From Cladocopium goreaui (taxonomy: Eukaryota > Sar > Dinophyceae > Suessiales > Symbiodiniaceae), in contig CAMXCT020001784.1 in the NCBI GenBank assembly GCA_947184155.2, positions 62,001 to 126,000 on the forward strand: DNA of 64,000 nucleotides, given 5' to 3'. The position numbers and the translations under genes are program-made. The notes beneath the pieces were generated by a model. The model had not been told where the DNA came from. It saw only the letters and a list, made by a program, of their open reading frames with translations, and searched no databases. Below are positions 15,992 to 60,001 of the stretch, piece by piece (positions within the stretch are counted from its first letter, which is position 1; the number at the start of each line of letters is the position of its first letter).

Positions 15992-15994
15992 TCA
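15992..15994 (-). other. In-frame UGA between RNase H and methyltransferase-like part
   Basis: CCA CCT TGA GTG CAC: the frame is open on both sides with no other stop from 18508 to 15524. It may be a readthrough site or a single nonsense mutation. Confidence 0.7.
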
Positions 15995-39092: not shown

Positions 39093-39289
39093 GTGTAGTG
39101 CACCAAGATGCATCGAAAGGGGACTGGCGCGATAGTTGAAACTTTTCTTCTTGTTTGTTTGTCCTGGTTTTAAGTTGATTGGTTCTACATTGCTCCAGGT
39201 GACAGCTAGGTGTTGCACATGAAGTGCATGGTTGACCGGTTGCAAGTGTGCACCGCGTCTATTTAGCTGCAACCTTGTGTTTTTCGCGC
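39093..39289 (+). repeat. Split direct repeat A1
   Basis: 197 bp, GTGTAGTGCACCAAGATG...TTTTTCGCGC. It matches A2 except for a 4-nt TGTC insertion in A2. It contributes a spurious C-terminus to the interrupted host frame. Confidence 0.95.
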
Positions 39290-39323
39290 GTTCTATTCTA
39301 TTTTCTTTTTGCTGTGTGGCAGG

Positions 39324-41456: not shown

Positions 41457-41887
41457 TATGTGTTTTAGTGGCCAAGTCCGCTAGGTGTACACACGTGCTT
41501 GCTGAAAGGGGACCAATGTTTGGCCCTTTGCCATTGCTCGTAGCTAACGCAAAGTGGATTGTGTTAGGACTTTGAGCTAGATTGGCAATGGTTTTCATCT
41601 CATGCTTGAGATTTCTCTGAAGTTGGCCAGAGCTGCTTTCTAATTCTGGTTGCTAACACAATGGTGGTTGTGTTATGGCTTCATCTCATGCTAGAGATTC
41701 CTTTCATGTTGAGTTGGGATATGTTCATCCGCCAACTTTGATTTCTACACTTGATCGCATGTGTTTGTTCCGGCCGGGGCACGTTCTTTAGCGCGGCATG
41801 CTGCATGCGCTATGTTTGCTTGGCCAGCTTGTGATCATTGTGTATGTTCTTCAATTACGTCAATTGAGCTTGTCAACTGTTGACATC
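41457..41887 (+). other. Spacer between recombinase and gag
   Basis: No gene seen. TAACACAA-type words and TCATCTCATGCTNGAGATT are repeated twice (41597-41620 and 41682-41700). Confidence 0.5.
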
Positions 41888-43126
41888 ATGCCTTTGATTT
41901 CTTTATCTGATGAAGAGCGCTCAGCAGCGTTGAAGGCTGCATCACCTGACTTGAAGTACCACTTGTCTGAGGTGAAAGTCCCTGTGGAGGTGCAAGCCGC
42001 TTTGTTCCACAAAGGCTTTGTGGATTTGCAGCTTTTTGCCGGGCTGGATGAATCCCGCTTGGAAGTGCGCAATGCTCTTGCTGTTGAAATTGGCTTAAAG
42101 CACGACGAGTGCACCGATGCCCGCCAAAATGTTGCCCGGCTATTATCTGCATGGGAATCTTCTCGTGCGCAGCTGGTGGCTGAGGACAAGATGAAGGCTG
42201 AAAGCAAGCTCGGCCAAACGCCTCGGATTGTGCAGTGCTCCGAGATGGCAGCTTTGCGCAAAGCGGTGGAGGCTGATCTTGGCAAGTTACAGGACGATGA
42301 GGTCCCTGCCAAGTCTCTGATTGCCACCAAGTTGGAACAGATTGAATCTGGCGACCTACGTGCCGAAGACTTACGTGAGGTCCTTTGCGTGGAAGACACA
42401 GATGTTGATCTCTTTAGTGGCATCATTGAGCATGGCACCGGCAATCTCAAGATCAAGCCGGGGAAGGCGAGCATTGCTATGCCATCAACTCCAGAAGAGT
42501 TGAGGCTACGACATCGCCGCATTGGCATTGCATGGCTGATGGTGGGGTCCAAGCACAAGAACCAATCCTGGATCACGCCTGCCTTGTTGGAAGCGTTTCG
42601 CCGTTTTTCTGACCATATTGTGGGCAGGCACATTGCAGGTTTTCCGATCATGGCCCAGGGAGTGACAAGGCACCCAGCTTGGAATTTGGTGTTATCTTAT
42701 GAGCTAGAAGTACGCAAAAGGGCTTACAAGCAGCTGCGCGATGGCAAGCATTCATCTTTGCAAGAAGCTTTGGAAGATGCGTGGAATTCTGCTGAGCTGA
42801 TCAACAAGCATTTTTTGGTTCCTCTGACTGCATCTGCTGACTTCTTCAGCACGGCCAGTCACGGTGAGGTGTTTACTGCCCATGGCAAAGGTAGTGGCAA
42901 GCATGGGAAAGGCAAAGGCAAGGGCAAAGACAGGCGTTTGGTCTCCAAGCAGTTCCTCAAATCTAGATCGGAAGAGGGTAAAAGGCTTTGCTTCAGATTC
43001 AACAATGGCACATGCAAGGAAAAACATTGCTCTTTTCACCATGCTTGCCAAATCTGCCTTGGAGAAGGCCATGGGAAGAAAGATTGCCCGAGTCATCCAA
43101 AGAGCATGTTGCAGTCACCAGCTTGA
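41888..43126 (+). CDS. Gag-like protein of YR retrotransposon 2
   Basis: ATG 41888 (MPLISLSDEERSAALK) is chosen because its distance to the conserved part matches the other element; an in-frame ATG at 41798 is possible. Conserved features are LLSAWESSRAQL with EDKMKAESKLG, RHRRIGIAWLMVGSKHKNQ and WNLVLSYELEVRKRAYKQL. Near the end lie a GKGKGKGKDRR linker and a zinc-finger-like CFRFNNGTCKEKHCSFH then CQICLGEGHGKKDC. It is likely the capsid or RNA-binding protein. It ends at TGA 43124-43126 with the same frame open beyond. Confidence 0.85.
   Translation: MPLISLSDEERSAALKAASPDLKYHLSEVKVPVEVQAALFHKGFVDLQLFAGLDESRLEVRNALAVEIGLKHDECTDARQNVARLLSAWESSRAQLVAEDKMKAESKLGQTPRIVQCSEMAALRKAVEADLGKLQDDEVPAKSLIATKLEQIESGDLRAEDLREVLCVEDTDVDLFSGIIEHGTGNLKIKPGKASIAMPSTPEELRLRHRRIGIAWLMVGSKHKNQSWITPALLEAFRRFSDHIVGRHIAGFPIMAQGVTRHPAWNLVLSYELEVRKRAYKQLRDGKHSSLQEALEDAWNSAELINKHFLVPLTASADFFSTASHGEVFTAHGKGSGKHGKGKGKGKDRRLVSKQFLKSRSEEGKRLCFRFNNGTCKEKHCSFHHACQICLGEGHGKKDCPSHPKSMLQSPA
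43124..43126 (+). other. In-frame UGA at gag-pol junction (YR element 2)
   Basis: CCA GCT TGA ACG GCT. The gag frame remains open through the UGA directly into the RT frame. The first ATG of pol is 217 nt further on (43343). See the same arrangement at 59999-60001. Confidence 0.75.
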
Positions 43127-45445
43127 ACGGCTGCAGGGGCCCAACCGGCTGATGGGCCCCGCCAGGAATCAATTTTGTCAGCCGAAAAAGTCAGTGCCGC
43201 GCTTCCCTCGCCTGCGGTGGGGCATTCATGTTCGGGACAGCGCGTCAGCTCTAGTGTTGATACAGATTTGCTTGATGGTGAAGAAGAGTCAGCATGGTTT
43301 CATCAAGCAGTCGGTGGCTGCGGACCTCCTTTGAAGTCACACATGATGGGTAAAAGCAAACCATTTGTTGACGGTAGTGGTTTGTGCTCGCCCGGACGGT
43401 GGAGCCCATGCGCTCGTCATGTGAAGCCGATAGGTGCGCAATGCTTTGCAGGTCTGCAGACAGTGTTGGACAAGCACACGGACGGGCGTAGACTTCTTTT
43501 TGAGTTGGCTTGCAAAAAACATGTGGACCAGCCTTTCCCTGCAGCACTGGTGAAAGAAGCTAGGGAGGCTGTCAAAGGCATTCTGAGAAAACATGGTGCG
43601 CAGCTTGATTTAGATGCAATTCCAGAGCGACAGCCTTTCCATCTTGCTTTGCTTGAAGAGTTTCTGCGTCTCTGCAACGATCCTGATGCTTCAGCGTATT
43701 TTTCAGGCAAGGATTCATTTGCTGCGGGCGTGTCTTTAGGTGTGAATCAGAAGATGCCGCGAACTCCAGCTGTTTTCGAGAAAAAATGCAAATGGCGTGC
43801 CTATGACGGGGAAACTACAGCAGCGGATGTTTTCCGGAACAACTATCCTGGCGCGGCAGAAAATGCAAAGGCGATTGAAGCACAATTCGTAGAAGAAGCC
43901 AAGTTAGGTGCGATGGTGAAGATGGAAGTTGAGGAGGCGTCAAGGATCTATGGTGAAAATTTGAGGGTAGCTTCGCTTGGTGCAATCCGGAAAGCTGATG
44001 ACAGCTTCCGTGTAGTCCATGATGGAACACACGGCATAGGGGTCAATGGTAATATCAAGGTGCGTGACCAGATTGCATGCCCAAGTGCAGGTGATTTGCG
44101 GCAGGTGCTACAGGTGCTGGAGAAGCCGACTTTTGTTTTGACAGCAGACATCAAGCGCGCGCACAGGCTTGTGAAGATCAAGCCAGAAGACTGGGGGCTG
44201 CAAGCATGTAGGACAGACGAATCTTCTTCATTTGTCTGGCTGAATACTGTAGGCACTTTTGGCGTTGCGTCAGCTGCAGTACATTGGTCGCATCTTTTCA
44301 GTGGAATACAGCGGGCGGTGTACTATTTAACTGGTACTTTGAAGCTGTTTCTCCTCACCTATGTTGATGATTTGCTGTTCATTACACAAGGGAAAGCTGC
44401 AACGGATGCAATTGTAGTTGCTCTTCTGTTTATGGTAGTCTTGGGCGTTCCCTTCAGCTGGCATAAGTGCAAGGGGGGCACACAGGTCGAATGGGTAGGC
44501 TACTACGTGGATCTGGAACAGAAGTCTGTTGGTATTAGTGAAAAACGTGCAGATTGGATTTGCAACTGGGTTGAGACAACTGTGGCAGCAGGCGTGGTGA
44601 AATTGCATGACTTTTCTGCAGTGCTAGGTCGGCTTTCTTTTGCAATGGCGGCAATTGAGCACCTCAGGCCTTTTCTGGGGCCACTGTACGCATGGTCTGC
44701 AGCCCTGGAAAACGTGGTTCATGCTCGCTTGCCTAAAGCTGTTATCTACATCTTGCGTTTCATTGAACATATGCTGAAACATGGATGGCGTACTCGCCCA
44801 GTGGGACCTCTGCAAGAAGCTCGTAGGGAATTATTCAGGGCAGATGCAAAAGCCGAAGGTGAAGTGATTTGCATCGGTGGCTGGGCAGTTGAGGACGGTC
44901 CGGATACAAAATCATGTAGATGGTTCAGTGAAAGGTTGACGCGGTCAAATGCACCTTGGGCTTTCTTGGCTGGGGAATCTTTCCGAGCCATTGCATCACT
45001 GGAATTGTTTGCCACCTTAGTGAGCCTGGTCCTCTTCAAGCCTGCGTGCTACAAAGGTTCAATGAAAATTTCAGCTGGAACTGATAACTTGGGAAATACA
45101 CATCTCATCGCTCGGTTGATGAGCACCAAATTCCCATTGTGCGCTATTTTGATGGAAGTGGCGGCAGTTCTCATGGACGGCAATCATGATCTGCAGTTGG
45201 AATGGCTTCCTCGTCTCCAAAACCAGGAGGCAGACAATCTCACAAATGAGATTTTTCACGGTTTCAGTGAGGATCGCAGGCTGCGATTTCGTATGGAGGA
45301 GTATGAAGGTTTAGTCTTACAGGCAATGTTGAATTTGTGCATGGAATTGTACGAGGACGTGCGGAAAGCACGTGACCGCAAGGTGAGCCAGACCAAGCGG
45401 GTGAAGACTGGCGAGCCTCTGCGTGTGAGAGACCCTTGGGGCTGA
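43127..45445 (+). CDS. Reverse transcriptase and RNase H of YR retrotransposon 2
   Basis: Translated as a continuation of gag through UGA, or from ATG 43343 (MMGKSKPFVDGSGLCSPG). RT motifs: SFRVVHDGTHGIGVN, LTADIKRAHRL, the NTVGTFGVASAA region and catalytic YVDD (44360-44371). RNase H: D in LFRADAKAEGE (44843), E in SLELFATLV, D in ISAGTDNLGN and NQEADNLTN. The order and SAA/YVDD context are typical of DIRS-order RTs. No methyltransferase domain is present, unlike the element at 55-64 kb. It makes the DNA copy from the RNA. Confidence 0.9.
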   Translation, partial: TAAGAQPADGPRQESILSAEKVSAALPSPAVGHSCSGQRVSSSVDTDLLDGEEESAWFHQAVGGCGPPLKSHMMGKSKPFVDGSGLCSPGRWSPCARHVKPIGAQCFAGLQTVLDKHTDGRRLLFELACKKHVDQPFPAALVKEAREAVKGILRKHGAQLDLDAIPERQPFHLALLEEFLRLCNDPDASAYFSGKDSFAAGVSLGVNQKMPRTPAVFEKKCKWRAYDGETTAADVFRNNYPGAAENAKAIEAQFVEEAKLGAMVKMEVEEASRIYGENLRVASLGAIRKADDSFRVVHDGTHGIGVNGNIKVRDQIACPSAGDLRQVLQVLEKPTFVLTADIKRAHRLVKIKPEDWGLQACRTDESSSFVWLNTVGTFGVASAAVHWSHLFSGIQRAVYYLTGTLKLFLLTYVDDLLFITQGKAATDAIVVALLFMVVLGVPFSWHKCKGGTQVEWVGYYVDLEQKSVGISEKRADWICNWVETTVAAGVVKLHDFSAVLGRLSFAMAAIEHLRPFLGPLYAWSAALENVVHARLPKAVIYILRFIEHMLKHGWRTRPVGPLQEARRELFRADAKAEGEVICIGGWAVEDGPDTKSCRWFSERLTRSNAPWAFLAGESFRAIASLELFATLVSLVLFKPACYKGSMKISAGTDNLGNTHLIARLMSTKFPLCAILMEVAAVLMDGNHDLQLEWLPRLQNQEADNLTNEIFHGFSEDRRLRFRMEEYEGLVLQAMLNLCMELYEDVRKARDRKVSQTKRVKTGEPLRVRDPWG

Positions 45446-45533
45446 GAGTTGATAGGTAGAAACCTGCTTGCCGAGTCAAGCGATTCAACCGTACCATAAT
45501 ATATTGTTTGAGGCATGGGTCGCCTGCGGTTGG

Positions 45534-45759
45534 GAGTTAGGTGAGCGCCCATGCTGGGTTGCTTTGCACATCTGTAGGACATGTGTTTTGTCCTACATGG
45601 TCTATTTTGCCTCTGGCCATGTCTTGGCTATATGACATATGGTATGTCTTATGGTATATTAATTCCCACACCGCTAGAAAAAAGAAGGGCGAGTCATTGT
45701 GCGTGTCATCTAAGGCTAGGGTTGGCTGGGCGGTAGTTCTAACTAGAGTAGAAGTCCCG
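45534..45759 (+). repeat. Split direct repeat B1
   Basis: 226 bp, GAGTTAGGTGAGCGCCC...AGAAGTCCCG. Same length as B2, with no difference noticed. Confidence 0.95.
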
Positions 45760-45959
45760 TGTAGTGCACCAAGATGCATCGAAAGGGGACTGGCGCGATA
45801 GTTGAAACTTTTCTTCTTGTTTGTTTGTCTGTCCTGGTTTTAAGTTGATTGGTTCTACATTGCTCCAGGTGACAGCTAGGTGTTGCACATGAAGTGCATG
45901 GTTGACCGGTTGCAAGTGTGCACCGCGTCTATTTAGCTGCAACCTTGTGTTTTTCGCGC
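45759..45959 (+). repeat. Split direct repeat A2
   Basis: 201 bp; shares the first G with the end of B1. It differs from A1 by a 4-nt insertion in the GTTTGTTTGTC stretch. Confidence 0.95.
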
Positions 45960-45986
45960 CCCGCCCTCTGCCACCCTACGGCGCGT

Positions 45987-46212
45987 GAGTTAGGTGAGCG
46001 CCCATGCTGGGTTGCTTTGCACATCTGTAGGACATGTGTTTTGTCCTACATGGTCTATTTTGCCTCTGGCCATGTCTTGGCTATATGACATATGGTATGT
46101 CTTATGGTATATTAATTCCCACACCGCTAGAAAAAAGAAGGGCGAGTCATTGTGCGTGTCATCTAAGGCTAGGGTTGGCTGGGCGGTAGTTCTAACTAGA
46201 GTAGAAGTCCCG
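45987..46212 (+). repeat. Split direct repeat B2
   Basis: 226 bp copy of B1. The element ends at ...AGTCCCG and the host helicase frame resumes with AGCTGGCTGCC. Confidence 0.95.
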
Positions 46213-49200
46213 AGCTGGCTGCCTCACGCATATACAGACAGTGCAACCCTAAATTCATCGAAGTTGCTTTCCTCTCAGGACCGGCCATTGAGTTTTTTGC
46301 AAAGGAACAACTTGAAGCCCTCCAAGACCTGTATAGTGCCTCCGGCCAGCACCTGGACCCCATTGATGCGACCGTCCAAGGACAGAAAAGCCCGGTCCCC
46401 CAGACCTTCTTTCTAAATACAATGTGGATGTTCGGATGTACTAAGCCTACCCGAGAGCTTACCGCTGTCGCGCAAACCCCCCCGTGCAGGTACCACCTGG
46501 GATTAGGCATCTACAATGTCCAAACGGCAGTGGAAGGAATGGAGGGCAACAAAAGATCACATTTCTTGCATTTGTGCGGCCAGTTGCTCCGCCTAGTGCT
46601 AATTCCATGTCACGTGCAGGGCGAGCTTCACCCTTGGACTCGCTCCACTGCACTGTCCTTTGCCGCTGAGCTGGACGGACACGTTTTAGGCACACTCTGC
46701 GCAGTGACAATGGCGTTGCTCACCAACCGGCTAGATCTGTGCATCCAAGGGCTTTTCGGAGCAGGCAAGTCGAAATCGATGGCAATCCTCATCCTGGCCT
46801 TGATTGAAATCGACACTACCGACAGCCTCAAAATATTGTTCATTTGCAAAGAGAACTCCGGCACTCGATCCTTTGCTGACCTCCTCCTATGGCTCGACCC
46901 CCCGTCGGGGGTGTTTGGGCGCATAGGTAGGCTGGTGGGAGACCAAGAGCGCAACAAAAGCAGTTACTCGCACACGAAATTTGACATCCACCCGAGAGAA
47001 AGAAGGCAAATGCTGAACAAGTGTCAGTTAATATTAGCCACTGGGGGAACGGTAGCCCAGGATCTTACCACGCAATGGTCCACAATGAGTGGTTTTATGC
47101 AAGAGCTCTCCCTCCTGGTCATTGATGAAGGTCAGCAGTATGGCACTGACCGCGAAATTGCAGTTATCAGCCTGCTGAAACAGCAACCCCTGGTCCTTTG
47201 GACAGGAGACTCTGAGCAGACACCTGGCGGCATTGATCGGGCAGCTCGCAACGCAAAACGGTCACGACAACTACTGTTAGCTAAAAAGCATGGCCTGCGA
47301 AGCGACCGCAACTACTACATGCCAGCCAACCTTGCCGATGCAATGATCCGACTGCTAGACGGTTCGGCGAATGAAGGCTTAACGGCTCTTAGTCAAATCC
47401 TCAAACGAGGCCAGTCCACGTTAGGTCAGCTATGGACAAGTCACCTCTCGCCGCAGGATGAGGAAGACCTCAGGGCAGCCAGCACTGTGCTCCCAGGCCT
47501 CAAAGCCGTATTTGAAGCAGCCCAACCAAATATGCAACGACACTCCCGATTTGTAGACTCGGAACTGCTGGCGGGTACCGCTCTCAATTTTCCACGGTCT
47601 CTTGTGCGCCTTGCCTGGCTTTTGCAGCATGCCGCTACCCTCCTGCCCATGGCTGGTGACATACAAGCAGTCTTAAATTCCCAGACCGCCGGTGTAAGCG
47701 ACATCCATGCCTGGGGGTTAATGCTTCCCTCCAGCTCCAGGGTTAGTCCTGTGACATACCATGCAGTGGTTGCAGTTAGATATCCCGATCTTTGCAGGCA
47801 GATCAATGGCCTATGGGAACTGGGAAGTTTTGCCTCGGGAGGCCTTCCCGACAAGCCACCAGGGTTCCAATTAGTACTCTGGGATACTAATGCTAGGATT
47901 AACGGTTTGGTAGCGACGGATTTAGAGACTCTTGTGTCAGAAGTACTCAGCCCCTTTCCTCACAATGCTGGATTTGCAGATGGACTTTTCATAATGACCA
48001 CAGCAACTGATCATAAGAACAATTTGAACCGCTCCGTGCTCAAAAGGGATTATGTTCGCACCCTGCGTGTCGAAACAATAGCCAATTCGGCAGGAGGAAC
48101 AGCGCAGGTATCAATCGTAGCTCAGCCCAGTATTGGATTTCTCAACACTAAATACTACTCCAATGGCTCTCCTACAGAAGATACTGAAGACTGCCTTGGC
48201 AGAATCACTGTCGGACTCACCCGGTCCAAATCGTTAACCCTGCTGGTCTCCCCGCTAGACATGATGGGGCTCATGGGCATGGCACAGGTGATTGCTGCAA
48301 TTGCATATGGCATCCGGGGCCTACGGAGAGGAGAAACGACATGGAGCATGCCAAAATTTGACCCTGACCCAGTCCAAGAGAATCTAGCACAGCTAAGCCG
48401 GTGGTCACTCAATTCGGCACCAACCTGGGAGTACCCTCCCCTTGCAATTGCCAATCAATACTACGATCAGCAAGCTGACGAAGTGAAGCGAGCAAGATAT
48501 CGTCTGATATTGGTACGAGGGTCAGACCTTAGATGGCTGAACAGGGAGCGCTTCCAAGAAGTTCAAGCAGGTTTACGAACTCAACACAAGTGGCTCCCCG
48601 AGCAAAATCTCCCTTTCTCTGAAGTTGTCCTATATGCCTACGCTGCTGATCGCACACACTTTCCCACCTACGTGTGCCTACCCTCAGGACTGTATAAAGC
48701 ACGCACCGGGCACATAGTAGCACAGACGGGCCCAGACCAGGAGATCCTGTCCCTGCCCGGCATATACTTCTTTGATGGATGGCGATTACACCCGAAGTTG
48801 CCAATCCCAGACCACTTGCCACGCGCAAAAGAGGCGCCAGTCCAAGGTACCGCTCTCAATGCACCTGCACCAGATACGGAACCTAAACGGTCGCCAGAAG
48901 AAGAGGCACGAGATATCCTCGCAGTAGCTGCCAAGAACCAGCCCGAAGATGGGCCAAGCACAAGAAGAGCAGCTGTTCGCGCATGCAAGTACTTACGAGC
49001 CATGGTCAGCCAATATGAGACCACCATCCAAGCCGTGCATAGTGCCGCCCGCACCCACACGCAAAAAAGCAAAGGCACGGTGGGACCTGCAGTTGACTAT
49101 CGCCCACAAGGAGAAGCCCTCCCAGTCATCTCAGCGGACCTAACCTCCGAATTGTTGCATTGTTTATCCACGCTCCCAGACCCATGGCCCTCAGCTAAGA

Positions 49201-50783
49201 TCACCATAGACATGGAGAAACCGAGCCAATGGGTCTCAAAGTTGTGCAGACTTTACTTTGCTGACGAGTATGCCAAACGAACAGTTGGATTGCCCTCACG
49301 TAGGCATGTCCCGGACATCGCGGGTGCACTACGAGCAGTTCAAGCCATCCTCCCTAAACTCGAAGTCAAAATGATTGAGTTCTTAGCTGAATGGATGGTA
49401 ACTCTTCTAATGCCAGCCTCGCACGTATTGGAAGTGAGGGCACCTCACCTTTCCTTTATGATGCTAAAGGAATACTGGTTTAGAGAACTGTATCTAGGTC
49501 TGAAAGTCACAGCATCCTTCGACCGCTCCGAATTATACACCAGAGTGATCGATGGTCAGGTAAGATGTATCACGCCTGAAGTCAAGCCGCAGAATTTGCA
49601 GGTTATTTGGAATGTGCAGTTCATCACAGTCTTCGTGCCGGCATGGATGATCCCGCCCGTCTACCATAGCCTGCGCAGAGAAAGCATTAAAACTGCGAGT
49701 TCTGCAAGTCCCATAGGAGTCCAGTCAGTCCGTCCCACCTGGTTTGAAGACACAACACCCAAGGACACTACATCCCAGCAACCTCAAGACCCTCAAAAAG
49801 AGCAACCCCAGCCACTACATGGGCTGAAGTTAGTCATCAAAGAAGAGGTGTTGCCAGCGACTGACCAACCACAATTCCAGTCACTTGAGCTGTTGGCTGG
49901 CAGAGGTCTCTTAGCACCTGACACATGGAAGTGCAAACGTGCACAAGTCAGCCTCAAAGCAACTATTGATGTCCCCATGTTGGGTACAATCATAGAGCAA
50001 AATGGTGACGGACTCCTGGAAGATTCCCACATGCCTGTGGGATGGCCACTCCACATCGATGGCGCTGTCAGACAATGCTGTATTCACAGAGCTGCTAGCT
50101 TGCAAGAATTAGATGATATGCTCAAAGAATATGACATGAAAAGGGATTCAGTAGAAATCAACCGTGACGCGCCACAATGGTCCCATCATGCAGTATGGAA
50201 CCGAAAGTATATGGAACCGAAACCAGGATACACACTGGAGCAACTATGGGCCGACTCCGAGCCTGCCATAAGCAAAAAAACGACCACGTCATATGATGTA
50301 CAAACAAATGACGTGCAACGTGCAGTAGCGGCCATTCAGCATTTCCCATCCCCCATTCCCCCTGATAGCCCCTTCATACGAGCACTAGGGACACCGGCTG
50401 CCCTAAAAGCCCCACCGCAGACGGACACCCTAGCGCAAAGAGCTCTGGAAGAATGGGAACGCACTTTGCGTGAAAACAAGGCAGTGGCAATCCTCGCCGA
50501 GATACAAGCCGGCCGACCAACTATAATCCACAAAGATGGTGGCGAAATGCTCATTGCCATTGTCCTTGACAGGCCACTGGCGGAAGCAAGGGAACTGGTT
50601 GGTGACCCTGCGGCATTCACTCGCGAAATGACGCGGATCCTGCGTGACAAGCAAACCCACCCGCTTATCGCCCAAATGATGAAACCAGCGGCGAGCAGTG
50701 ATCCACCCCCCGCCACTGCTGCAGCCAGTGGTGCTAGTAGCAGTGGAGAACCTCGCACCACCACACACGAGCAGTTCCAGTGA
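46213..50783 (+). CDS. Giant helicase-element polyprotein, C-terminal part with SF1 helicase
   Basis: The frame is open from the transposon junction (reading ELAASRIYRQCNPKF), so ATG 46422 is internal. SF1 (UPF1/DNA2-like) motifs: Walker A GLFGAGKSKS (46752), motif II LLVIDEGQQ (about 47115), motif III LWTGDSEQTPGG (about 47199), motif V-like ANSAGGTAQVSI, motif VI RITVGLTRSKSL (about 48201). After the helicase come about 850 residues of unknown domains, also found at 12865-26425, ending HEQFQ. With 35536-39092 it forms one polyprotein of about 2,700 codons, which is unusually long. Confidence 0.8.
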
Positions 50784-51113
50784 GCCACATGAAGTGACGC
50801 AGAGTCCCCATGTTTCTCATCCATGCATTTAGCGTGTAACTTGCCTTAGGTTGAGCGGTGTTGTCACCATGGGGTACTCATGGTTGATTACCGCCCGCTG
50901 CAATTACTTTTGCTGTCAGCATGTCGGAGCCAATCTGAGACGGGAGGCGGTGGGGGGCGGGTATAATAATCCTGTTCTGGGTTTTTAATTTGTATTTGTT
51001 CGTGTTGTGCTACCTTAATTGTTGCATGGTAGTTTAGTGCGATGTCAAAGTACATCAAGCCATGGCGCCCGTCGCTGTTTTGCTCAGCGCAATCCAGTAC
51101 CTGCATTGCTTGA

Positions 51114-51310
51114 ATGCCACCTGGCCATATGAGTTCAGTGCAACCAAGTGAAGTGGTATGCCTGCCTCAAGAACCCCAGAGTCACAATGAGGCACAGGAT
51201 CTCCTCCTTTTGCAGGACTATGTGCACAGACTGACGAATACTCTCTGGAAGACACCCATGCCGTATTGCAACAAACAGAACTCCTTGCAGGTGTTATCAA
51301 CGAGCAAGAT
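51114..51310 (+). pseudogene. Small tail protein, 5' part (split by inversion)
   Basis: MPPGHMSSVQPSEVV... to about VINEQD. Its continuation lies on the other strand at 52290-52577. The intact homologue is 12078-12533. A 4-nt deletion near 51242 also alters the frame. Confidence 0.6.
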
Positions 51311-52289
51311 TTTTTTTCCGTCCAACGCCATGTGGCTTCCTCCAGGTCGTTTAACAGCTATCAAAGCCTGTTGCAAATGACATTAATTATTTAATTCGCA
51401 CAGGGGCCAATGCTGTAGTGGCCGCAAAAGTAAACTGGAAAAGGACCGATACATAGTCCAAAGGCTTGTCACGTTCCAGGGTTCAAAAACGGAGACCCAA
51501 AAACGAAAAACAAAGAACCACAGCAAAACAAAAACACCAAAACAAAACCAAACGACAAACAAAACCCACACAAAAGAAAAACAGCCACAAGGCCACAAAA
51601 CCGTGACGTGACAGATTCCAGTTTATATGTGAAACAGATCTGTTGAGGCGAGAGGTGATAGCTTGTTATCATCTCAGCGCATGCAGATGACAACTTGTGT
51701 GTCATGTTGGCAGGCCCATAAAATAAAACAACAACAAGACCAAAGACAAAATCACCATGGGCCACTTGACGGGTGTGGGAAGCAACAAGGCTCAATGCGG
51801 AAACCAGGGATCCCCCCAGCCAGGATCCCCGAGATCACACCGAGCAGCCTTCACGGCATGACATTAAACACCCTAACACTTTGAAGCAAACACCGACAAC
51901 GCCGGGTCACAACAAAGTGGTGAGAAACTACCGCAGTGAAACAGGAGAGTGAAACGTGATCTAGGGTGAAAAAGACGGCGCGGTAACAGCACTCATGAAC
52001 CCTCAGAGTCCGCTCAGTACTGCTTTTCCAATCATCATATTGCAACGAAGTTGTGATATGCAATGCATCTTCGTAATATGGGGGATTGTAGCCATATATG
52101 GGAGTTGCAGTGCAGTCTGGCGGTGTATACCGCTTTCAAAACTGAATCCAATGCGATCGAGTTCGCGAAGGGCGAGCTCGACAGCATGGATGCAGGCTTG
52201 CAAGCGTTGCGCAGCTCAAGCGGTCAACTTAGCAGGTGTTGAAATCAACTGCATTAAATGCGGTCAGGTGATCATGGTAGCTGGCTCAG

Positions 52290-52577
52290 TTACCTTGGTG
52301 TAGGAATACGAGCGTTTTTCTCTGCCCAGGGACCAGGTCTATTCTCAAAGTGTTCAAACGAGGTTCTGGACAGGCAACTTGTGTCAGCTGTGTTAAGGTC
52401 CTCAGTCTGGTAATGTTGTACGCTCGCATGCATGAGCTGTAGCTGTCGACTAATCACTTCACGTTCTGTAACATTGGCACGGGCTTCTACTCGACTTCTT
52501 ATGCAACAGCAGACTGTGCGAATGTCTCTGCAGTCTTGCTCGTTGATAACACCTGCAAGGAGTTCTGTTTGCTGCAA
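52290..52577 (-). pseudogene. Small tail protein, 3' part (inverted)
   Basis: QTELLAGVINEQDCRDIRTV to the C-terminus KNARIPTPR. The last 95 codons of the 151-codon tail protein, now in opposite orientation to its start. It lacks the LRI triplet present at 12285. Confidence 0.6.
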
Positions 52578-53811
52578 TACGGCGTGGGTGTCTTCCTTTT
52601 TTTTTTCCTCCGGTTTGGCCGATTCGCACTAGGCACGGTCCTTACAATTGCGTAAGCAGTGAAAAGCAGTAGTGTACAGGACTCGTGTGGTCCAAAATCT
52701 CCGGCAAATCATCACGAGAAACAAACCAAACAACAAGAACCACAACCAAAAACGACCCGCAAATCCCCCAGCCAGATTTGCGTTTCGCCACAAAGCAAGA
52801 CAGCGAAGCAACAAAGAAAGGGGCAGGGCCCAACAAGAACCAAAACAAAAAACTCTCAGATTTGCCTTGGATACAGCGACCTTAGCCACTGTATCATCCT
52901 CAAAAACATGCAAACTAATTAATTGCGGCGGTGCATGAAGTGTTGTACCTGTTGCCCAGACCGTCTTACCTGAGAACAGCAAAGAGAGTCCAATATTGTA
53001 GGCAGACTGATGTGTGGTTCGACAGAGGCCGCCTGTATGAACGATTTGTCAATAAATCAACTTCCGCATCGCTGCTGTTCACCCTGTATTGTTCAGCGTA
53101 CGCCAGGCGATCTGTTCCTGTCAGTATACACCACCGCAAGGGACTGTAATCTATTTCCCCCCCAAGACAGGGAGGAGAGCACTGACAGCCTGCAACATGG
53201 TGTGAGCACTTGCAGAAACCGTCACGTGACTTGTGCCCAAGACACTAAGGCCGTGGGTGAAACGGTGGCTAAAGGCCTGACCGGCTCAGTACGGCCATGA
53301 CAGACAAATGATGTTTCGATCATAACATGGGCTCGTGAGCACTTCCAGTATGATACTGCAGGTAGGTATACAAAAGTCGCACTCGCATTGCTGTAAGACT
53401 TGTTCACTAAAACGATCAAAGATGAGGTGGTTCGGTGCGCCAGCACCAGATACTCAGACAGGAGTCACTAGGCGTCATCGTCCCAGCAAGTTCTGCGGAG
53501 AGGACCGGATGCACAGAAAGGCAACTGTATATTCCAGACAAAGCCACTCTCCCACCGAGTGGGCCATAGGCCAGAGCAATACAGAAAATCCGCACAACGA
53601 ACCATGTGGGCAGGCTTTGCTGCACTCGGGCGCTCCAGACTGAACTGCAGGAAGTACAACTGGACAGCGCCAGTAGAGCTCACTGCAGTGCAGCCTAGTC
53701 CATGGCTCTACCGGGAATCTACCGCCCCATAAGAAAACACACAGGAACAAAAAAAACGGAGAGAGAAGGGCCCATCCCAATACAGCCAAAGAGGAAGCCA
53801 CCTGCCAAATA

Positions 53812-53841
53812 AAACACAAACAAACAAACAAACAAACAAAC
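53812..53841. repeat. (CAAA)n microsatellite
   Basis: About seven uninterrupted CAAA units. Confidence 0.9.
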
Positions 53842-54900
53842 GAATTCAAAAGGGGATCAAATTAACAAAAAAGGGGAGGGGAAGGTGAGCAAAGGCTGTC
53901 CCACCTCGGATAAATCCTTAGTCACTACCGGATGAGATCAATGTAGCCATGGTGAAAAGATGGGTGACTGTGCAGAGCTGTAACCTCGGTATCCAGGCAA
54001 CAGAGGAAGCAAAAACAACACACGCCCAAACAACACGACACCTGCCATCAAGGGGGAAGCAAAGAGGGGGGAGCGGCCAAAGTACAACCCATGCAATGCT
54101 ACAAGCCAACAGAGGAAACGAGGAGAGGAGCCAGGAGGCAGCAGAGGACAGAGAGAGAGAGGACACACACGCACAAGAAGGGGTACGAACGTGTCTTAGC
54201 GGAGTCCAAGAAGGGGACAAGGATCATACAATGATGAATACCTCAGTGAGGGAGCACACAGCACCCCAACCACACAGGAAACATGGTGTAGAGGGAAAGA
54301 TCCCCACACAGGGCCAAGGCCTTTGTTGCCATGAGACATCATGAGGAGGGGAAACAGTGCGCAACAAACACTCCACGCGCAGAGGCACGGCAACCAGGCC
54401 GTCGCCGGAAGCAACGATACCCAGAGGGAGGGACCAGTAAAACCTGGACCAGGGCGCCAACGAGGACCATCCGAGGGGGAGGGAGGGCTACGGCAGGCAG
54501 GGACCAAACAAAAACCAAAACAGAATCAACAACCGAGGCACTACGCCTACTGTAACTCTGCAAATTGCAAAAACTATAGGTAAGACGATGAATTCACGTA
54601 CCTTAACTAGTGGGAAGGGTGGGAGAGGGGTAGTCTCGTCAGTATTACGTCAGGGGATAACGGAAACGGTTGCATCATCATCTATGATTGTCAGGCACCG
54701 GGTACGAGAGCGTGCGCTCATGCAGTAGGCTTCATGGTGTGAGGAGGCCTTAGTATAAGCTAAGCTCTCGACTGGACAACACATTCTAAGCACTAGTGCA
54801 AGGGGAAAGCATGCTGCTCGGTTTATTATGCCTAGGCTATCACTCACACATGAGAACACATGTGTGTGGCTACTGGCTGTTGGAGGTCTGAATCAGTAGG

Positions 54901-55092
54901 GGCCAGGCATGGGGCAGAACATTTTTGACAAGTATGAATGAGGGAGGTCTGTGTCACCTACTGCATACCAGTGCACCTGTCACGTCTTTGGACAGACACA
55001 CCAGTATGGAAGTAACCTCCCAGGCATGGGTCATGAGGAACCTGACAATTATAAATAAGGAAGAGCTGTGTCCCCGACTGCATACCAATGCA
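54901..55092 (+). repeat. Two-copy tandem repeat of about 117 bp
   Basis: CAGGCATGGGKCA...GAA..TGACAAKTAT...CTGTGTC..CTGCATACCARTGCAC occurs at 54905-54980 and 55021-55092. The second copy is cut by the end of YR retrotransposon 3, so this may be its target. Confidence 0.6.
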
Positions 55093-55534
55093 CTTGTCTT
55101 CCGTTGTGGGGACCCCAGAAGTCATCTACAGGGGGAGGGGTGAGCACCGAAGGTGGTAAGTGTGTGCATGTGTGTGCAAGGTGTGTGTGTGTGTGTGTGT
55201 AACTGCAATTGCCAAAGTTCCAAACCAAACGAACCCTGAAACGTAAACTCAAATGAATATCTCCAAACTCAAACGACATCAATGAAATGAAAGCTGCTGC
55301 AACTGAAAATGTGGACATCACTGAAATGGTCTCAGAAGGATCGCTCAGCGCATGTTCTTTTTGACCGGGGGTTGTGGACATCCTGCCGTATGAGTCTGTG
55401 CTGCTGCCAGCACTGCAAAGCTTCACCAAAGTCTCAAGCCAGTGTTTCTTGTAAACCAAATTGCATTTCAACCATTGCATATTCACCAGCTAAGAAGGTT
55501 CAACGCATCAAGCATCTGTCTGAGTCTGCCCCTC
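55093..55534 (-). repeat. Split direct repeat B2 (YR element 3)
   Basis: 442 bp; matches B1 apart from the length of a GT run and rare substitutions (GCCAAAG against GCCGAAG). Confidence 0.92.
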
Positions 55535-55815
55535 AATGGGAGACTGTTGTATTTCCAATCCAACCAAAGTCATGTCATCGATGACATCGTGAATTTCGAC
55601 TGCGATGGCGAAGCAGCAAACGCGTAGGATGCAAACGTCACCAATGGTCAGAAAGGTCACAAAGCTAATGCTCTGTTGTACACCCAGACCGAAAATGGTA
55701 CGGGTCAGTGGTAGATCGAAAAGCTGCTCATATCGATCCAGTTGTTCCGCAGTGTAAACTTCGATTCGGTTGTCACGTAAAGACTGCATTCCCCCCCAAG
55801 GTGAGGGAGGGTGGG
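55535..55815 (-). other. Spacer between A2 and B2 (YR element 3)
   Basis: 281 bp not found elsewhere in the window. A minus-strand open frame of 93 codons (55508-55789) crosses into B2 and is not convincing. The other element has only 27 bp here. Confidence 0.6.
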
Positions 55816-56222
55816 TAGCAGAAAATTTGTTTGAGCCTGATCTCCCACATCGAGACGATTCTCATTCCATGTTCCTTTCAAGTACGTGCATTTGAAAAGG
55901 AGTCAAACTGAAAACTGCAACCCAGGTAAGTTTCATCCAAGGTACGACATGTCTCATCTGAAATGAAATAAGACAGCACTTCAAAACGAGTTGATGAATC
56001 CTCAGAAGTTGTCTTCCAAATAAACAGTGCAAATAAGCCGAGGCCCGGTAAACGAAACTGCCGAAATAGAAACCTGTTTGTTTGTTCAAGGTTGTGCAAG
56101 TTGAAAGTGCAGGTTGTAGAGACATCCCAAACCAGAACCCTGCAAACACCCGGCACACACACACACACTAGCACAGCAAACCCCCACCCCTGCAGACAAA
56201 CAACTGAGGCGAGCCCAAGTAG
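55816..56222 (-). repeat. Split direct repeat A2 (YR element 3)
   Basis: 407 bp by position between the spacer and B1. Its first 113 bp (55816-55928) recur without visible difference at 63888-64000. Confidence 0.9.
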
Positions 56223-56660
56223 CTTGTCTTCCGTTGTGGGGACCCCAGAAGTCATCTACAGGGGGAGGGGTGAGCACCGAAGGTGGTAAGTGTGTGCATG
56301 TGTGTGCAAGGTGTGTGTGTGTGTGTAACTGCAATTGCCGAAGTTCCAAACCAAACGAACCCTGAAACGTAAACTCAAATGAATATCTCCAAACTCAAAC
56401 GACATCAATGAAATGAAAGCTGCTGCAACTGAAAATGTGGACATCACTGAAATGGTCTCAGAAGGATCGCTCAGCGCATGTTCTTTTTGACCGGGGGTTG
56501 TGGACATCCTGCCGTATGAGTCTGTGCTGCTGCCAGCACTGCAAAGCTTCACCAAAGTCTCAAGCCAGTGTTTCTTGTAAACCAAATTGCATTTCAACCA
56601 TTGCATATTCACCAGCTAAGAAGGTTCAACGCATCAAGCATCTGTCTGAGTCTGCCCCTC
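56223..56660 (-). repeat. Split direct repeat B1 (YR element 3)
   Basis: 438 bp copy of B2; abuts the end of the RNase H gene. Confidence 0.92.
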
Positions 56661-56680
56661 CTTTAGAGACAGGATGCCCG

Positions 56681-57340
56681 TTACCATACAGTTTTGTTTG
56701 CCATCTTTTGTCTTTTTGTCTGCCTGCCTTCAACCAGTCTCAAACCAACCTGGCCATCTCTCGCTTCAACAAACTCATCTCTCGCCGAACAAAGCTCCTT
56801 CAGCAGTTCCAGAGGAAGGTCTCCCAAGGTGATGTGAATACGGTTATCCGACTCAAATAAACTGAAGTCTTGATTGGTGAGGGAGTCGGCAGGAACATTC
56901 TGCTCCCTTGGTCTCCAGCGCAATTTCATCCTTGTTCCGCATGAAAGCAACTCCGCCGAAACTTGCATGTGAACCGCTAACAACGGCCATTTCGTTGACA
57001 TGTTCTTGTTCTGCAAGGACTGATTAGACTTGTTGTCAGTCCCGCCAGTGATCGCCAGTTTCAGATTCTTCACCCGTTTCTCTCCCTTCAAATAGCCGAA
57101 AGCGCACGCAGCTGCGTACGATGCCATGAGTTCTGCCGCCGTAGAGCACCACTGCGACGAGCCATCTTCTTTGAAGAACATGGGAAGATCCGTAGGGTAT
57201 ACCTCCAAGCAAAACCATGATGATCTCTTCAAGTCTTCCACTCCAGCTTCCAGAGACCATCCAGCTAGGACAATCCGTCCGTCCTCGCACTTCGCATCCG
57301 TACGGAATGCCTCACTGGGAGACTGCCAAGGTGCCAGCAC
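56681..57340 (-). CDS. RNase H of YR retrotransposon 3
   Basis: Carries AFRTDAKCEDGRIVLAGW (first Asp), STAAELMASYAAA (Glu), ITGGTDNKSNQ (Asp) and EQNVPADSLTN, matching the C-terminal half of the RT protein at 43127-45445. It overlaps the RT frame by 29 nt in another phase. One frameshift near 57315-57335 therefore separates RT from RNase H. Confidence 0.85.
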   Translation of the reverse strand: MLAPWQSPSEAFRTDAKCEDGRIVLAGWSLEAGVEDLKRSSWFCLEVYPTDLPMFFKEDGSSQWCSTAAELMASYAAACAFGYLKGEKRVKNLKLAITGGTDNKSNQSLQNKNMSTKWPLLAVHMQVSAELLSCGTRMKLRWRPREQNVPADSLTNQDFSLFESDNRIHITLGDLPLELLKELCSARDEFVEARDGQVGLRLVEGRQTKRQKMANKTVW

Positions 57341-58595
57341 TCACCCAGTGTCCATGGTGTTGTATCTGCCGCCGCAAAAATCTCAAAGAAATAAAGACCA
57401 AGGTGGGAACCCTTGTGACGGTTCCCCGTGCAAGCACCGATGTCCAAGCAAAGAGTGGAGCCAGAAATGGTTTGATCCAAGTGACCACCCTCGCAACAAA
57501 TGACAACCTTCCAGTGAACTCTATAAATGATCTCCCTTGCACCATCCATCCGTTCCTTTCTGCATCATCGATCCACTTGATGACCCATTCTGCTCTCTTC
57601 TTTGAAATGCCTGCCACTTGTCGGTCATATTCCATCTGGTAACCAACGTACTCCACATTGAGGCCACCTCTGAATTTGTGGTACGCAAATGGTGTGCCCA
57701 TGATCTCATATGCCAGTATGCTCAGCCAGAGTGCTACAAATTTCTGTGGGCCCAGGCAAAGCAAGTGCACGTCGTCGACGTATGCCAGCTGCATCGTCTG
57801 TCTCCTATCCAAAATCCTTAGGACCCATCGTCCCACGCAAGCAAATAATCTAGTCCACCAGTATGCTGCGCTTGAAACTCCAAAGGTGCCAACACAATTC
57901 AGCCACAATGTTCGTGAATCTGATTTTGAGCGACATGCTAACCGTGCCCAGTCAGCCTTACGTATGAGCACGCATCGATGCGCCTGGCTTATATCTGCTG
58001 AAAGACAGAAGGCAGCTTCACGGGACTCTGCTGCAAGGGCCACCAACTCTATGATCTCCTCTGGTCCTGGAACTTCCAGGCGGTCAAGTATTTTGATCTT
58101 GTTGTTGAGCCCAATGCCGTGTGTGCCATCATGCAAGGGGCGCACACTACCATCTGGTTTCTGTATTGCTCCCATTGCTGCAATGAGTACTGCTTCTTCA
58201 CCGTACTCCATCTTGGCCTCCGCTAGAGTCGTGGGAAGCATCCTCCCCAGCAATTCATCCTTTCTGAAGTGCGCCTCCAACTCTTCCGAAGAAAGCTCTG
58301 CCGTAGCATAGTTTTTCATGTCCGGTTGAAAGTCAGTGATGTCCAGCTGCCTAAACTTCTCTCTGCGCCTGAACACCTGGGGAGTTCTTGGAAGCTCGGT
58401 CTCCACACCAAGCGGCACTCCCTTTGCAAAACATTCTTCACCTTGGACCAGTATCTCCCAATCGGGATCATCCAGCTCCCTCAAAGATTCTGCAAGCAAA
58501 TAAAGAAAGAAAGGTTGCCGCGGTGGCTGCACAAGTAAAGCATCTTCATCTCCCGGTCTGAGCAAGGTGGCTATCTTCTTTCTCAATGTCTGCAA
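57312..58595 (-). CDS. Reverse transcriptase of YR retrotransposon 3
   Basis: Motifs GSVRPLHDGTHGIGLN, LSADISQAHRCVL, NCVGTFGVSSAAYWW and catalytic AYVDDVHLL (YVDD codons 57782-57771). It aligns along its length with the RT at 43127-45445. The upstream part is in the methyltransferase frame. The change of phase falls near the CCCCTTTT run at 58610-58617, where a one-base indel would join both (GQSSNP... to PFGPEQLQTLRKK). Confidence 0.88.
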   Translation of the reverse strand: MQTLRKKIATLLRPGDEDALLVQPPRQPFFLYLLAESLRELDDPDWEILVQGEECFAKGVPLGVETELPRTPQVFRRREKFRQLDITDFQPDMKNYATAELSSEELEAHFRKDELLGRMLPTTLAEAKMEYGEEAVLIAAMGAIQKPDGSVRPLHDGTHGIGLNNKIKILDRLEVPGPEEIIELVALAAESREAAFCLSADISQAHRCVLIRKADWARLACRSKSDSRTLWLNCVGTFGVSSAAYWWTRLFACVGRWVLRILDRRQTMQLAYVDDVHLLCLGPQKFVALWLSILAYEIMGTPFAYHKFRGGLNVEYVGYQMEYDRQVAGISKKRAEWVIKWIDDAERNGWMVQGRSFIEFTGRLSFVARVVTWIKPFLAPLFAWTSVLARGTVTRVPTLVFISLRFLRRQIQHHGHWVSAGTLAVSQ

Positions 58596-59983
58596 CTGTT
58601 CCGGACCAAAAGGGGATTGCTGCTTTGCCCAAGTGCCAAGCGAAATGCTTCCTTCCGCAAGTCCCCAATCTCCTTCACCAAAAAATCGTGAAGGATCTCT
58701 ACAACTTGCTCAGCATGCTTTGTTGCTGAACCTTTAGCCAGATAATTGCGAGCCCCTGGCAACCACCTGCCCGGTGAGCACAATCCAAAGCCATCAGTGA
58801 ACTCTTTCTTGCAACTTTCGTATCTGCAAATGATGGGCTGTCCAAAACAAGAAGAGGTTGTACTGTCAAACACCATATCCTCTTGCATCTGCCCACTTCC
58901 AGCTATCTGATCTTCACCTGATGATATCCAAATCTCTCCATGGGGCTTGTTGCCTTCGTTCTCAGTTTCCCCATTGGCTGGCTCACTGAATCCAGTCGGT
59001 CCAGACACAGGCCCCTTGCCCCTGTGGAGCGCAGTTGAAGAGGTCGTTGATGTGGTGTCCTGGATGACCGTTGAAGGGTTGGTGGAAGTGGTGGCAGGTG
59101 TCTTGGCTGTTGGAAGTGCAGTGGTTGTAGGTGTATCTGTAGTAGGCGCTGTTGCAGTGTCATGTACCCCCTGCGCAGCCATGCACTGTGGGAGCGCTGA
59201 GATTATGTCCAAAGCTATTGATTTGCACATTTCTTCAGGATATGCCGCTGAATCAGCTGTGTTCCACTTCTGCAATTCCACATTAAATCCCAGAAGTGGT
59301 GGGTGCGAGATGTGGGGACATTTCCCCAATGGTCCTGTGTAAAAGCCAGCTTCATCAAAAGTCGCCCAGTTCACACCATGTTGCAAACAATTTGGTAAAT
59401 TTGAAATCAACCTGGTCGGTTTGGAGGTGGGAGCCCCAAAGATGCATTGATGTATGGCCCAGGAAGCGGCCTGTGTCGCCTGCACCAACTGTCGCAAAGC
59501 CTGCAACTGCCAGATTGACGCAGGGTAATCTCCTGCCCTTGTCTTTCCCAAATCCTCAGGGTGTTCCCACCAGTAAAACCGTCCTTGCGCATGCATTCGC
59601 TTTGCAGCTTCCAAACATTGAAAAATAAAGAAATTTGCAGTTTGCACCGTTTCTTGATCTGTCATGCGTAACCAAGGGAAGCCCAACGGCCAAGTAGCTG
59701 ACCGTAGTGGTCTTGGACCTCCTTGTCGAAAGTGGTGCCTTGCCCTGCTGAATGTATTGCATGGTGGTGAAACCAACAAAACGTCCACAAGCCCTTGATC
59801 AATGTCCTTGAATAGATCATCCCACAGTTCTGTCTTTGACAAGTCATGGGAATGGTGAAGCTCAATATCGAGCTCTTTAAGCTCCAAGTGAAACATGCCA
59901 TGTGCCAATAGTTGCAGCTGCTGTCTGATGTCTCCGCGCCTTGATGCGCCTGCAAACAAGTAGACCACCCGCAACGTCGGCAA
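58583..59983 (-). CDS. Cytosine-C5-methyltransferase-like domain fused to pol (YR element 3)
   Basis: Motif I-like VVYLFAGASRRGD (residues 6-18), an acidic ELDIE after the second strand, and motif IV VLLVSPPCNTFSRARH with the Pro-Cys pair at 74-75. A motif VI-like WWEHPEDLG (Glu140) replaces the usual ENV. No clear motifs VIII-X or target-recognition domain. A Thr/Pro-rich linker follows, then SCKKEFTDGFGLCSPGRWLPG, the start of the RT region shared with element 2. The frame is the gag frame continued through UGA; the first ATG (residue 30) would delete motif I. Substrate and activity are not shown by the sequence. Confidence 0.65.
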   Translation of the reverse strand: MPTLRVVYLFAGASRRGDIRQQLQLLAHGMFHLELKELDIELHHSHDLSKTELWDDLFKDIDQGLVDVLLVSPPCNTFSRARHHFRQGGPRPLRSATWPLGFPWLRMTDQETVQTANFFIFQCLEAAKRMHAQGRFYWWEHPEDLGKTRAGDYPASIWQLQALRQLVQATQAASWAIHQCIFGAPTSKPTRLISNLPNCLQHGVNWATFDEAGFYTGPLGKCPHISHPPLLGFNVELQKWNTADSAAYPEEMCKSIALDIISALPQCMAAQGVHDTATAPTTDTPTTTALPTAKTPATTSTNPSTVIQDTTSTTSSTALHRGKGPVSGPTGFSEPANGETENEGNKPHGEIWISSGEDQIAGSGQMQEDMVFDSTTSSCFGQPIICRYESCKKEFTDGFGLCSPGRWLPGARNYLAKGSATKHAEQVVEILHDFLVKEIGDLRKEAFRLALGQSSNPLLVRNSCRH

Positions 59984-59998
59984 ATCTGTTGCCGTTTG

Positions 59999-60001
59999 TC
60001 A
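59999..60001 (-). other. In-frame UGA at gag-pol junction (YR element 3)
   Basis: AAC TGA CAA ACG, with the frame open on both sides from 61321 to 58583. Same position and same codon as in YR element 2. Confidence 0.75.

What the first reader, a model, noticed from the sequence alone, without database searches (positions are those of the whole stretch)
43124..60001. Same in-frame UGA at the gag-pol junction of two different YR retrotransposons
In the element at 39-46 kb (UGA 43124-43126) and the element at 55-64 kb (UGA 60001-59999, minus strand), gag and the following pol frame are in identical phase. The only stop between them is one UGA. The first ATG of pol lies 217 nt downstream in the first element and behind the methyltransferase motif I in the second, so re-initiation would be poor. 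The proteins have diverged greatly, so conservation of phase, position and codon suggests programmed UGA readthrough. That is established for some retroviruses with UAG or UGA, but I know of no report for DIRS-order elements.
Basis: partly seen in the sequence, partly recalled or inferred. Interest (0 to 1): 0.88.

Follow-up and report, generated by a model that had tools for sequence, protein, structure and literature searches.

The report
Leaky UGA between gag and pol
Mobile elements of a coral-symbiont alga appear to make their polymerase by letting a few ribosomes read through one UGA stop codon, helped in some families by an RNA knot like that of mouse leukaemia virus.

Summary
Observation confirmed. 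The UGAs at 43124-43126 (+) and 60001-59999 (-) are the only stops between gag and pol and lie in phase. In the host genome (1.17 Gb; Cladocopium goreaui by protein records) I read 53 junctions directly and tallied stops in 138 junction-spanning matches (104 further copies). All 157 copies carry TGA; none shows only TAA, TAG or a sense codon. Ends of the recombinase and pol ORFs are mixed stops. The 60 codons after UGA are open in frame in 20 of 20 lineages (0 stops; 32 and 67 in the other frames). An H-type pseudoknot 9-11 nt after UGA, with compensatory changes, occurs in 7 of 20 lineages, E1 included, and ranks first in all 8 loci scanned that have it. Four other lineages have UGA CUA; three, one of them with the pseudoknot, have UGA CGG. 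Best explanation: programmed UGA readthrough giving Gag and Gag-Pol. The mechanism is known from gammaretroviruses and fission-yeast Ty3/gypsy elements; my searches found no report for tyrosine-recombinase retrotransposons or dinoflagellates. There is no protein evidence, and 7 of 20 lineages, E2 among them, lack a recognised stimulator.

The parts
39093..39289 (+). E1 left repeat (A1 of the split direct repeats)
   Evidence: 100% and 99% copies at 45759-45829 and 45821-45959
39309..41456 (+). E1 ORF upstream of gag, labelled tyrosine recombinase; ends TAA
   Evidence: ORF; E1 and E2 versions match the same ORF of L050 at 28% and 36%; no Pfam match of note; label by position and an HxxR...Y-like motif read by eye
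41798..43123 (+). E1 gag; the start may rather be ATG 41888, near which homology to most other lineages begins
42989..43087 (+). Cys/His-rich (zinc-knuckle-like) end of E1 gag
   Evidence: read; label by recall
43124..43126 (+). E1 recoded UGA
43136..43160 (+). E1 pseudoknot stem 1: arms 43136-43143 and 43153-43160 (8 bp), 9 nt after UGA
43146..43184 (+). E1 pseudoknot stem 2: arms 43146-43152 and 43178-43184 (7 bp)
43127..45445 (+). E1 pol (RT, RNase H region), open 772 codons from the UGA, ends TGA
   Evidence: RVT_1 E 8e-7, 29.3 bits against a curated cut-off of 29.6
45534..46212 (+). E1 right repeats B1 (45534-45759), A2 (45759-45959), B2 (45987-46212)
61854..63860 (-). E2 ORF labelled tyrosine recombinase; ends TGA
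   Evidence: no Pfam match
60002..61321 (-). E2 gag
59999..60001 (-). E2 recoded UGA (context UGA CAA)
59978..59994 (-). E2 6-bp hairpin 4 nt after UGA, part of the best pseudoknot candidate there; not above background
   Evidence: 6.8% of 400 control positions score as well, 30% of 200 in the wider search
58583..59998 (-). E2 methyltransferase-like part of pol
   Evidence: AlphaFold2 model (pLDDT 80) whose first and third PDB matches are C5 DNA methyltransferases, E 3e-3 and 2.5e-2, so weak; no Pfam methyltransferase match
56681..58595 (-). E2 RT and RNase H part of pol in two further frames (57312-58595, 56681-57340); frame broken

Best explanation
Programmed UGA readthrough. Ribosomes translating gag usually stop at the UGA and release Gag; a minority insert an amino acid and continue into pol, giving Gag-Pol. 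In the E1 clade and in the L043-L054 clade the likely stimulus is a compact H-type pseudoknot 9-11 nt downstream. In the L015-L022 clade it is the adjacent CUA, and in three lineages (L043 group, L051, L055) UGA CGG may contribute. In the L027-L034 clade, E2, L056 and L052 the stimulus is not identified. Shown: codon, phase, openness, predicted structure and covariation. Inferred: that ribosomes do this, how often, and that the product is used.
For: TGA in 157 of 157 copies (53 read, 104 tallied), against TAA, TAG and TGA at recombinase-ORF ends and TGA, TAA and (decayed L036, L040) TAG at pol ends of the same set. Linkers of very different length stay in phase and open. In 8 representatives of 7 lineages 0 of 400 control positions per locus match the pseudoknot score, and it ranks first in each whole locus. 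Stem 1 of the L043-L054 clade keeps 95.2% of cells paired with two-sided changes in 6 of 9 pairs, against 40-57% paired when slid; stem 2 differs on both sides at 6 of 7 pairs between E1 and L013 yet pairs in both. CUA or CGG follows UGA in 7 of 20 lineages at a codon frequency of 1.6%. UGA is not read as sense elsewhere: 125 of 138 spanning matches hold one stop only, the TGA, and UGA ends many recombinase and pol ORFs.
Against: No ribosome profiling, proteomics or reporter data. Three of the six gag-tree clades lack a convincing stimulator in some or all members. In one search one of five covariation measures (further pair types, 253 of 500 shuffles) is not above shuffles and another is at 9 of 500. 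dN/dS in the short linkers is only weakly below 1 (pooled ratio 0.64 in frame, 1.08 and 1.41 out of frame, three pairs). One host genome, and the lineages share ancestry, so per-lineage probabilities overstate. One gene-model protein from another dataset (P0034) runs through the junction without an evident gap.
Confidence: 0.88

Rival explanations
1. Termination at the UGA followed by re-initiation or internal initiation on pol.
For: In some lineages an in-frame ATG is close (L046 UGA AUG; L015, L018 and L031 at 15, 18 and 27 nt from the U of UGA).
Against: It demands neither UGA nor zero phase, yet UGA is in 157 of 157 copies and phase is kept but for five indel copies of 53. The first ATG is 217 nt away in E1 and inside or beyond the methyltransferase motif in E2, L027-L029, L033, L043, L053. 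UGA-to-ATG stretches: 829 codons in 21 representatives with 1 in-frame stop (decayed L055) against 24 and 42 in the other frames.
Confidence: 0.05
2. Pol comes from a separate transcript (internal promoter or spliced-leader trans-splicing) with a non-AUG start.
For: An internal promoter was found at the Tca2 junction (PMC2194720 abstract); trans-splicing is general in dinoflagellates (recalled).
Against: Gives no reason for fixed UGA, zero phase or a pseudoknot 9-11 nt behind it.
Confidence: 0.03
3. An intron removes the UGA, as published gene models suggest.
For: Gene-model proteins join gag to pol: P0023 and P0122 (C. goreaui), P0021 (Symbiodinium natans), P0124 (Polarella glacialis), P0123 and P0034.
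Against: P0023 and P0122, from near-identical copies, join at different places; five of the six lack the Cys/His end of gag or the start of the methyltransferase, and P0122 reads the linker in another frame. P0034 is the exception.
Confidence: 0.02
4. UGA decoded as selenocysteine, or UGA reassigned in this host.
For: Only UGA is used.
Against: UGA ends many recombinase and pol ORFs; 125 of 138 spanning matches have no stop but one TGA, so UGA is not scattered through the frames; no SECIS or other Rfam match up to E 5 in E1, and only below-cut-off matches of unrelated families in E2. Protist SECIS elements can escape Rfam.
Confidence: 0.02

Closest known systems
Gammaretroviruses (murine leukaemia virus) gag-pol readthrough (type III)
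   Same: gag and pol in one frame, one stop, compact H-type pseudoknot; MuLV has an 8-nt spacer, 1-nt L1 and 18-nt loop, and UAG to UGA has essentially no effect (PMC4178896 passages); here spacer 9-11, L1 0-2, long loop 14-19 nt
   Different: UGA not UAG; unrelated element type and host; spacer purine-rich only in some lineages; no experiment
Fission-yeast Ty3/gypsy Tj1, Tosmo1-3, Tcry1
   Same: in-frame TGA between gag and pol with conserved GAA TGA CT(A/G) (PMC10085805 passages); L018, L022 and L025 have GAA TGA CTA
   Different: LTR elements with integrase; no pseudoknot mentioned in the passages seen
Tca2 of Candida albicans (Ty1/copia by recall)
   Same: gag-UGA-pol with a possible 3' pseudoknot (PMC2194720 abstract)
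   Different: the junction alone did not direct readthrough in yeast; an internal promoter was found
Type II viral readthrough (UGA CUA / UGA CGG)
   Same: same codon and following triplet in 7 of 20 lineages; definition from PMC11166343 passages
   Different: stem-loop 6-12 nt downstream not demonstrated for the CUA clade
SymbioDIRS-Dnmt3 and other Symbiodinium DIRS elements (de Mendoza 2018, PMC5890265; abstract, passages, section 6)
   Same: same host group, A-coding-B-A-B repeats, methyltransferase and RT in one pol ORF, recombinase in a separate ORF
   Different: 'gag' and 'readthrough' do not occur in the main text; the junction is not described there; identity of the methyltransferase here with Dnmt3 not shown

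Membership tests
Programmed stop-codon readthrough | downstream frame open, in phase and directly after the stop | tested here: met
Programmed stop-codon readthrough | stop identity conserved beyond other stops of the element | tested here: met
Programmed stop-codon readthrough | measured readthrough product | not testable with these tools
   no expression or protein data
Type III (gammaretrovirus-like) signal | compact pseudoknot about 8 nt after the stop | tested here: met
   7 of 20 lineages incl. E1, spacer 9-11 nt; not found in E2
Type III (gammaretrovirus-like) signal | purine-rich octanucleotide after the stop | tested here: inconclusive
   first 8 nt: 6 purines in L046, L047, L054; 3-4 in E1, L013, L043, L044, L053
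Type II signal | UGA followed by CUA or CGG | tested here: met
   7 of 20 lineages; not E1 or E2
Type II signal | stem-loop 6-12 nt downstream | tested here: inconclusive
   folding z-scores of the CUA clade not consistent; L055 has a 10-bp stem 10 nt downstream, L051 an 8-bp stem 6 nt downstream
YR (DIRS-order) retrotransposon with split direct repeats | A1-coding-B1-A2-B2 repeats | tested here: met
   E1; E2 repeats seen in part, cut by the window end
YR (DIRS-order) retrotransposon with split direct repeats | tyrosine recombinase ORF | tested here: inconclusive
   no Pfam recombinase match; HxxR...Y-like motif by eye
YR (DIRS-order) retrotransposon with split direct repeats | RT/RNase H pol | tested here: met
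   RVT_1 E 8e-7 in E1, 0.3 bits below the curated cut-off; RVT_3 E 0.007 in E2, below cut-off

The most novel reading that the evidence does not exclude
One family of retrotransposons has kept a single UGA as its gag-pol switch while swapping the signal around it: gammaretrovirus-type pseudoknots in two clades, CUA in another, CGG in three lineages, and in the L027-L034 clade and the E2 clade (as far as read) a signal of an undescribed kind, making dinoflagellate YR elements a natural series for how recoding signals turn over.
Probability: 0.45. Interest if true: 0.82.

Novelty: new variant of a known kind. Interest (0 to 1): 0.76.

Why it matters
It extends programmed readthrough, with a retrovirus-like pseudoknot, to tyrosine-recombinase retrotransposons and to dinoflagellates, for which my searches found no report. 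It gives over 150 related copies for studying what makes a stop codon leaky, would set the Gag to Gag-Pol ratio of a large element group that often carries a methyltransferase-like domain, and explains why gene models of these genomes join gag and pol by improbable cuts at this place.

Tried and rejected
Viral contigs held no relatives. Rfam gave nothing for E1 and only below-cut-off matches for E2. Simple folding energies near the UGA were not informative overall; the pseudoknot shows only with a pseudoknot search. Linker dN/dS was too short to decide. The L027-L034 clade gave only a weak consensus hairpin that includes the UGA itself: unexplained. A wider pseudoknot search gave weaker candidates in L051, L056, L055 (0 of 200 controls each) and L022 (4%), not claimed. 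Pfam did not name the methyltransferase-like domain; two of eight relatives had PF00145 at E 0.06-0.08; the fold search put C5 methyltransferases first but no match is below E 0.001. MAFFT did not place stem 2 in register in the L043-L054 clade, so only stem 1 was counted by tool. My count of no TGA in 20401 codons is true by construction (the walk stops at stops) and is not used.

Counts: one search was given 50 of 59 rows, 21 of 53, 55 of 63 and 54 of 57; the rest I judged not to span the UGA. Three of these left-out rows overlap the X of the query on paper and show no stop (C1608; C1469 and C2353), but their DNA ends 7 bases before, or starts 97-99 bases after, the TGA read directly in L028, L047 and L049. 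Three pasted rows do not span and were not counted. The searches score only the best candidates, and copies with an indel at the junction appear as split matches outside the 138. L050, where gag runs into the methyltransferase part without a junction, looks like a deletion; its relative L051 has the TGA.
Full report
What is there. The window is G000:C1784:62001-126000 of a 1.17-Gb assembly. Protein records named Cladocopium goreaui that match E1 lie on contigs of 615,856 and 79,231 bases, the lengths of C2669 and C3005 of G000, which carry E1 copies. E1 (39093-46212, +) has split direct repeats and the order recombinase-labelled ORF, gag, UGA, pol with RT. E2 (minus strand, 64 to 56 kb) has the same order with a methyltransferase-like domain between UGA and RT; its pol frame is broken further downstream. 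At both junctions the only stop is one UGA, in phase.

Relatives. A search of the genome with E1 pol, which does not include the junction, gave 60 matches down to 38% identity. Of 58 distinct copies held after (58 loci minus one copy of the window and one double, plus E1 and E2) the junction is visible in 53. It is TGA in all 53: 52 by script and L025. In 48 the nearest gag and pol matches are in phase; the other five have indels. The 52 fall in 20 lineages at 80% nucleotide identity (whose 53 rows count L012 and L014, two pieces of one element, twice). The gag tree of 19 rows shows six clades with long branches between them; the places of E2 and L052 are unsure.

Unbiased tally. Proteins that span the junction with X at the UGA were searched against the genome, so that stops inside each match are counted. 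Spanning matches: 47, 21, 55, 54; 138 distinct copies; every one has a TGA (125 one TGA only, 6 two TGA, 7 with a TAA and/or TAG besides). 104 of these copies were not among the 53, giving 157. The search reports the number, not the place, of the stop; in the directly read copies it is at the gag end. Three near-boundary rows without a stop are explained in Tried and rejected.

Controls. The recombinase-labelled ORFs of the same elements end in TAA, TAG and TGA; pol ORFs in TGA, TAA and, in decayed L036 and L040, TAG (first stop after the last homologous match). In the first 60 codons after UGA, 20 lineages show 0 stops in frame and 32 and 67 in the other two frames, of 1200 codons each. From UGA to the first ATG, 21 representatives give 829 codons with 1 in-frame stop, in decayed L055, against 24 and 42. 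Linker length to the first fixed motif varies from 10 to 154 codons, so indels have kept the phase. dN/dS of the linkers is mostly below 1, but the frame comparison on three pairs is weak (0.64 against 1.08 and 1.41).

The signal. In E1, L013, L046, L043, L044, L047, L053 and L054 (7 lineages) an H-type pseudoknot starts 9-11 nt after UGA: stem 1 of 7-10 bp, L1 0-2 nt, stem 2 of 6-8 bp, long loop 14-19 nt. No control position reached its score (0 of 400 in each of 8 loci), and in a scan of the whole loci it ranks first in all 8. E1 and L013 differ on both sides at 6 of 7 stem-2 pairs and still pair; L047 and L053 share stem 2 unchanged. In the L043-L054 clade (7 sequences) stem 1 has two-sided changes at 6 of 9 pairs, 95.2% of cells paired against 40-57% when slid; 0 of 500 shuffles reach the covariation score, 9 the number of two-sided pairs, 253 the number of further pair types. 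Of the other 14 of 22 representatives, 11 scored nothing, L020 and E2 were within background and L055 was better than 99.5% of controls. Four lineages (L015, L018, L020, L022, one clade) read UGA CUA and three (L043 group, L051, L055) UGA CGG, 7 of 20 against a codon frequency of 1.6%; counted as four origins of 17 the binomial tail is 1.4e-4; C follows UGA in 11 of 20 and U in none. E1 reads UGA ACG, E2 UGA CAA. The L027-L034 clade has UGA GAG, AAG or GAU and no structure that stands out. Without pseudoknot, CUA or CGG remain 7 of 20: L027, L028, L029, L031, L052, L056, E2.

Alternatives. Re-initiation, a separate pol transcript, splicing and UGA reassignment or selenocysteine are weighed in the Rival explanations section. 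The search of the protein database with P0001, in which only the 7987 candidates sharing most words were scored, found four other proteins that join gag and pol (P0122, P0023, P0123, P0124); P0021 and P0034 came from the pol search. Five of the six lack part of the gag end or of the methyltransferase start. P0034 joins them without an evident gap; whether by a small predicted intron or a sense codon cannot be told from protein.

Known or new. Readthrough at gag-pol is established in gammaretroviruses (PMC4178896 passages), reported for fission-yeast Ty3/gypsy elements with GAA TGA CT(A/G) (PMC10085805 passages) and suspected in Tca2 (PMC2194720 abstract). Features of viral types II and III as defined in PMC11166343 (passages) both occur here. 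Searches (listings) of the held open-access library, and passages of PMC5890265, PMC8547959, PMC3266345, PMC6681497 and PMC5009743, gave no report of readthrough in DIRS-order elements or dinoflagellate retrotransposons; most subscription papers are not held, so this is not proof of absence. Hence: new variant of a known kind.

Noticed in passing
15992-23076 (-): A Ty1/copia-like element: zinc knuckle, weak Pol beta-barrel match and RVT_2 in three ORFs overlapping in different frames.
   Followed up: partly
35485-39135 and 46422-50783 (+): E1 sits between two very long ORFs (1216 and 1453 aa); the second has a weak DEAD-helicase match, so E1 may have inserted into another large element or gene.
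   Followed up: partly
P0021, P0023, P0122, P0123, P0124: Gene models of C. goreaui, Symbiodinium natans, Polarella glacialis and another dataset join gag to pol at inconsistent places, leaving out the UGA and conserved motifs.
   Followed up: partly
41798-41888: Homology of gag to most other lineages begins near the second ATG (41888), where P0123 also starts; L015, L016 and L019 have a TGA upstream of it. L046 and L043 match a little further up.
   Followed up: partly
L059 (C1981:47040-47240): A near-identical sister of E2 carries a 19-nt tandem duplication 64 nt after the UGA; two further sisters (C3874, C4879) have matches split at the same query position.
   Followed up: partly
L050: A copy in which gag runs into the methyltransferase part without a stop and without the gag end; apparently a deletion across the junction.
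   Followed up: partly
L027-L034, after UGA: UGARA can pair with UUUCA/UCUCA 14 nt further on, with one two-sided change; a repeated UUUCACC motif lies there. Function unknown.
   Followed up: no
59009-59998 (-) and relatives: Methyltransferase-like domain without a Pfam match above cut-off; PPC, EDLG and KPTR residues are fixed in the 10 sequences aligned.
   Followed up: partly
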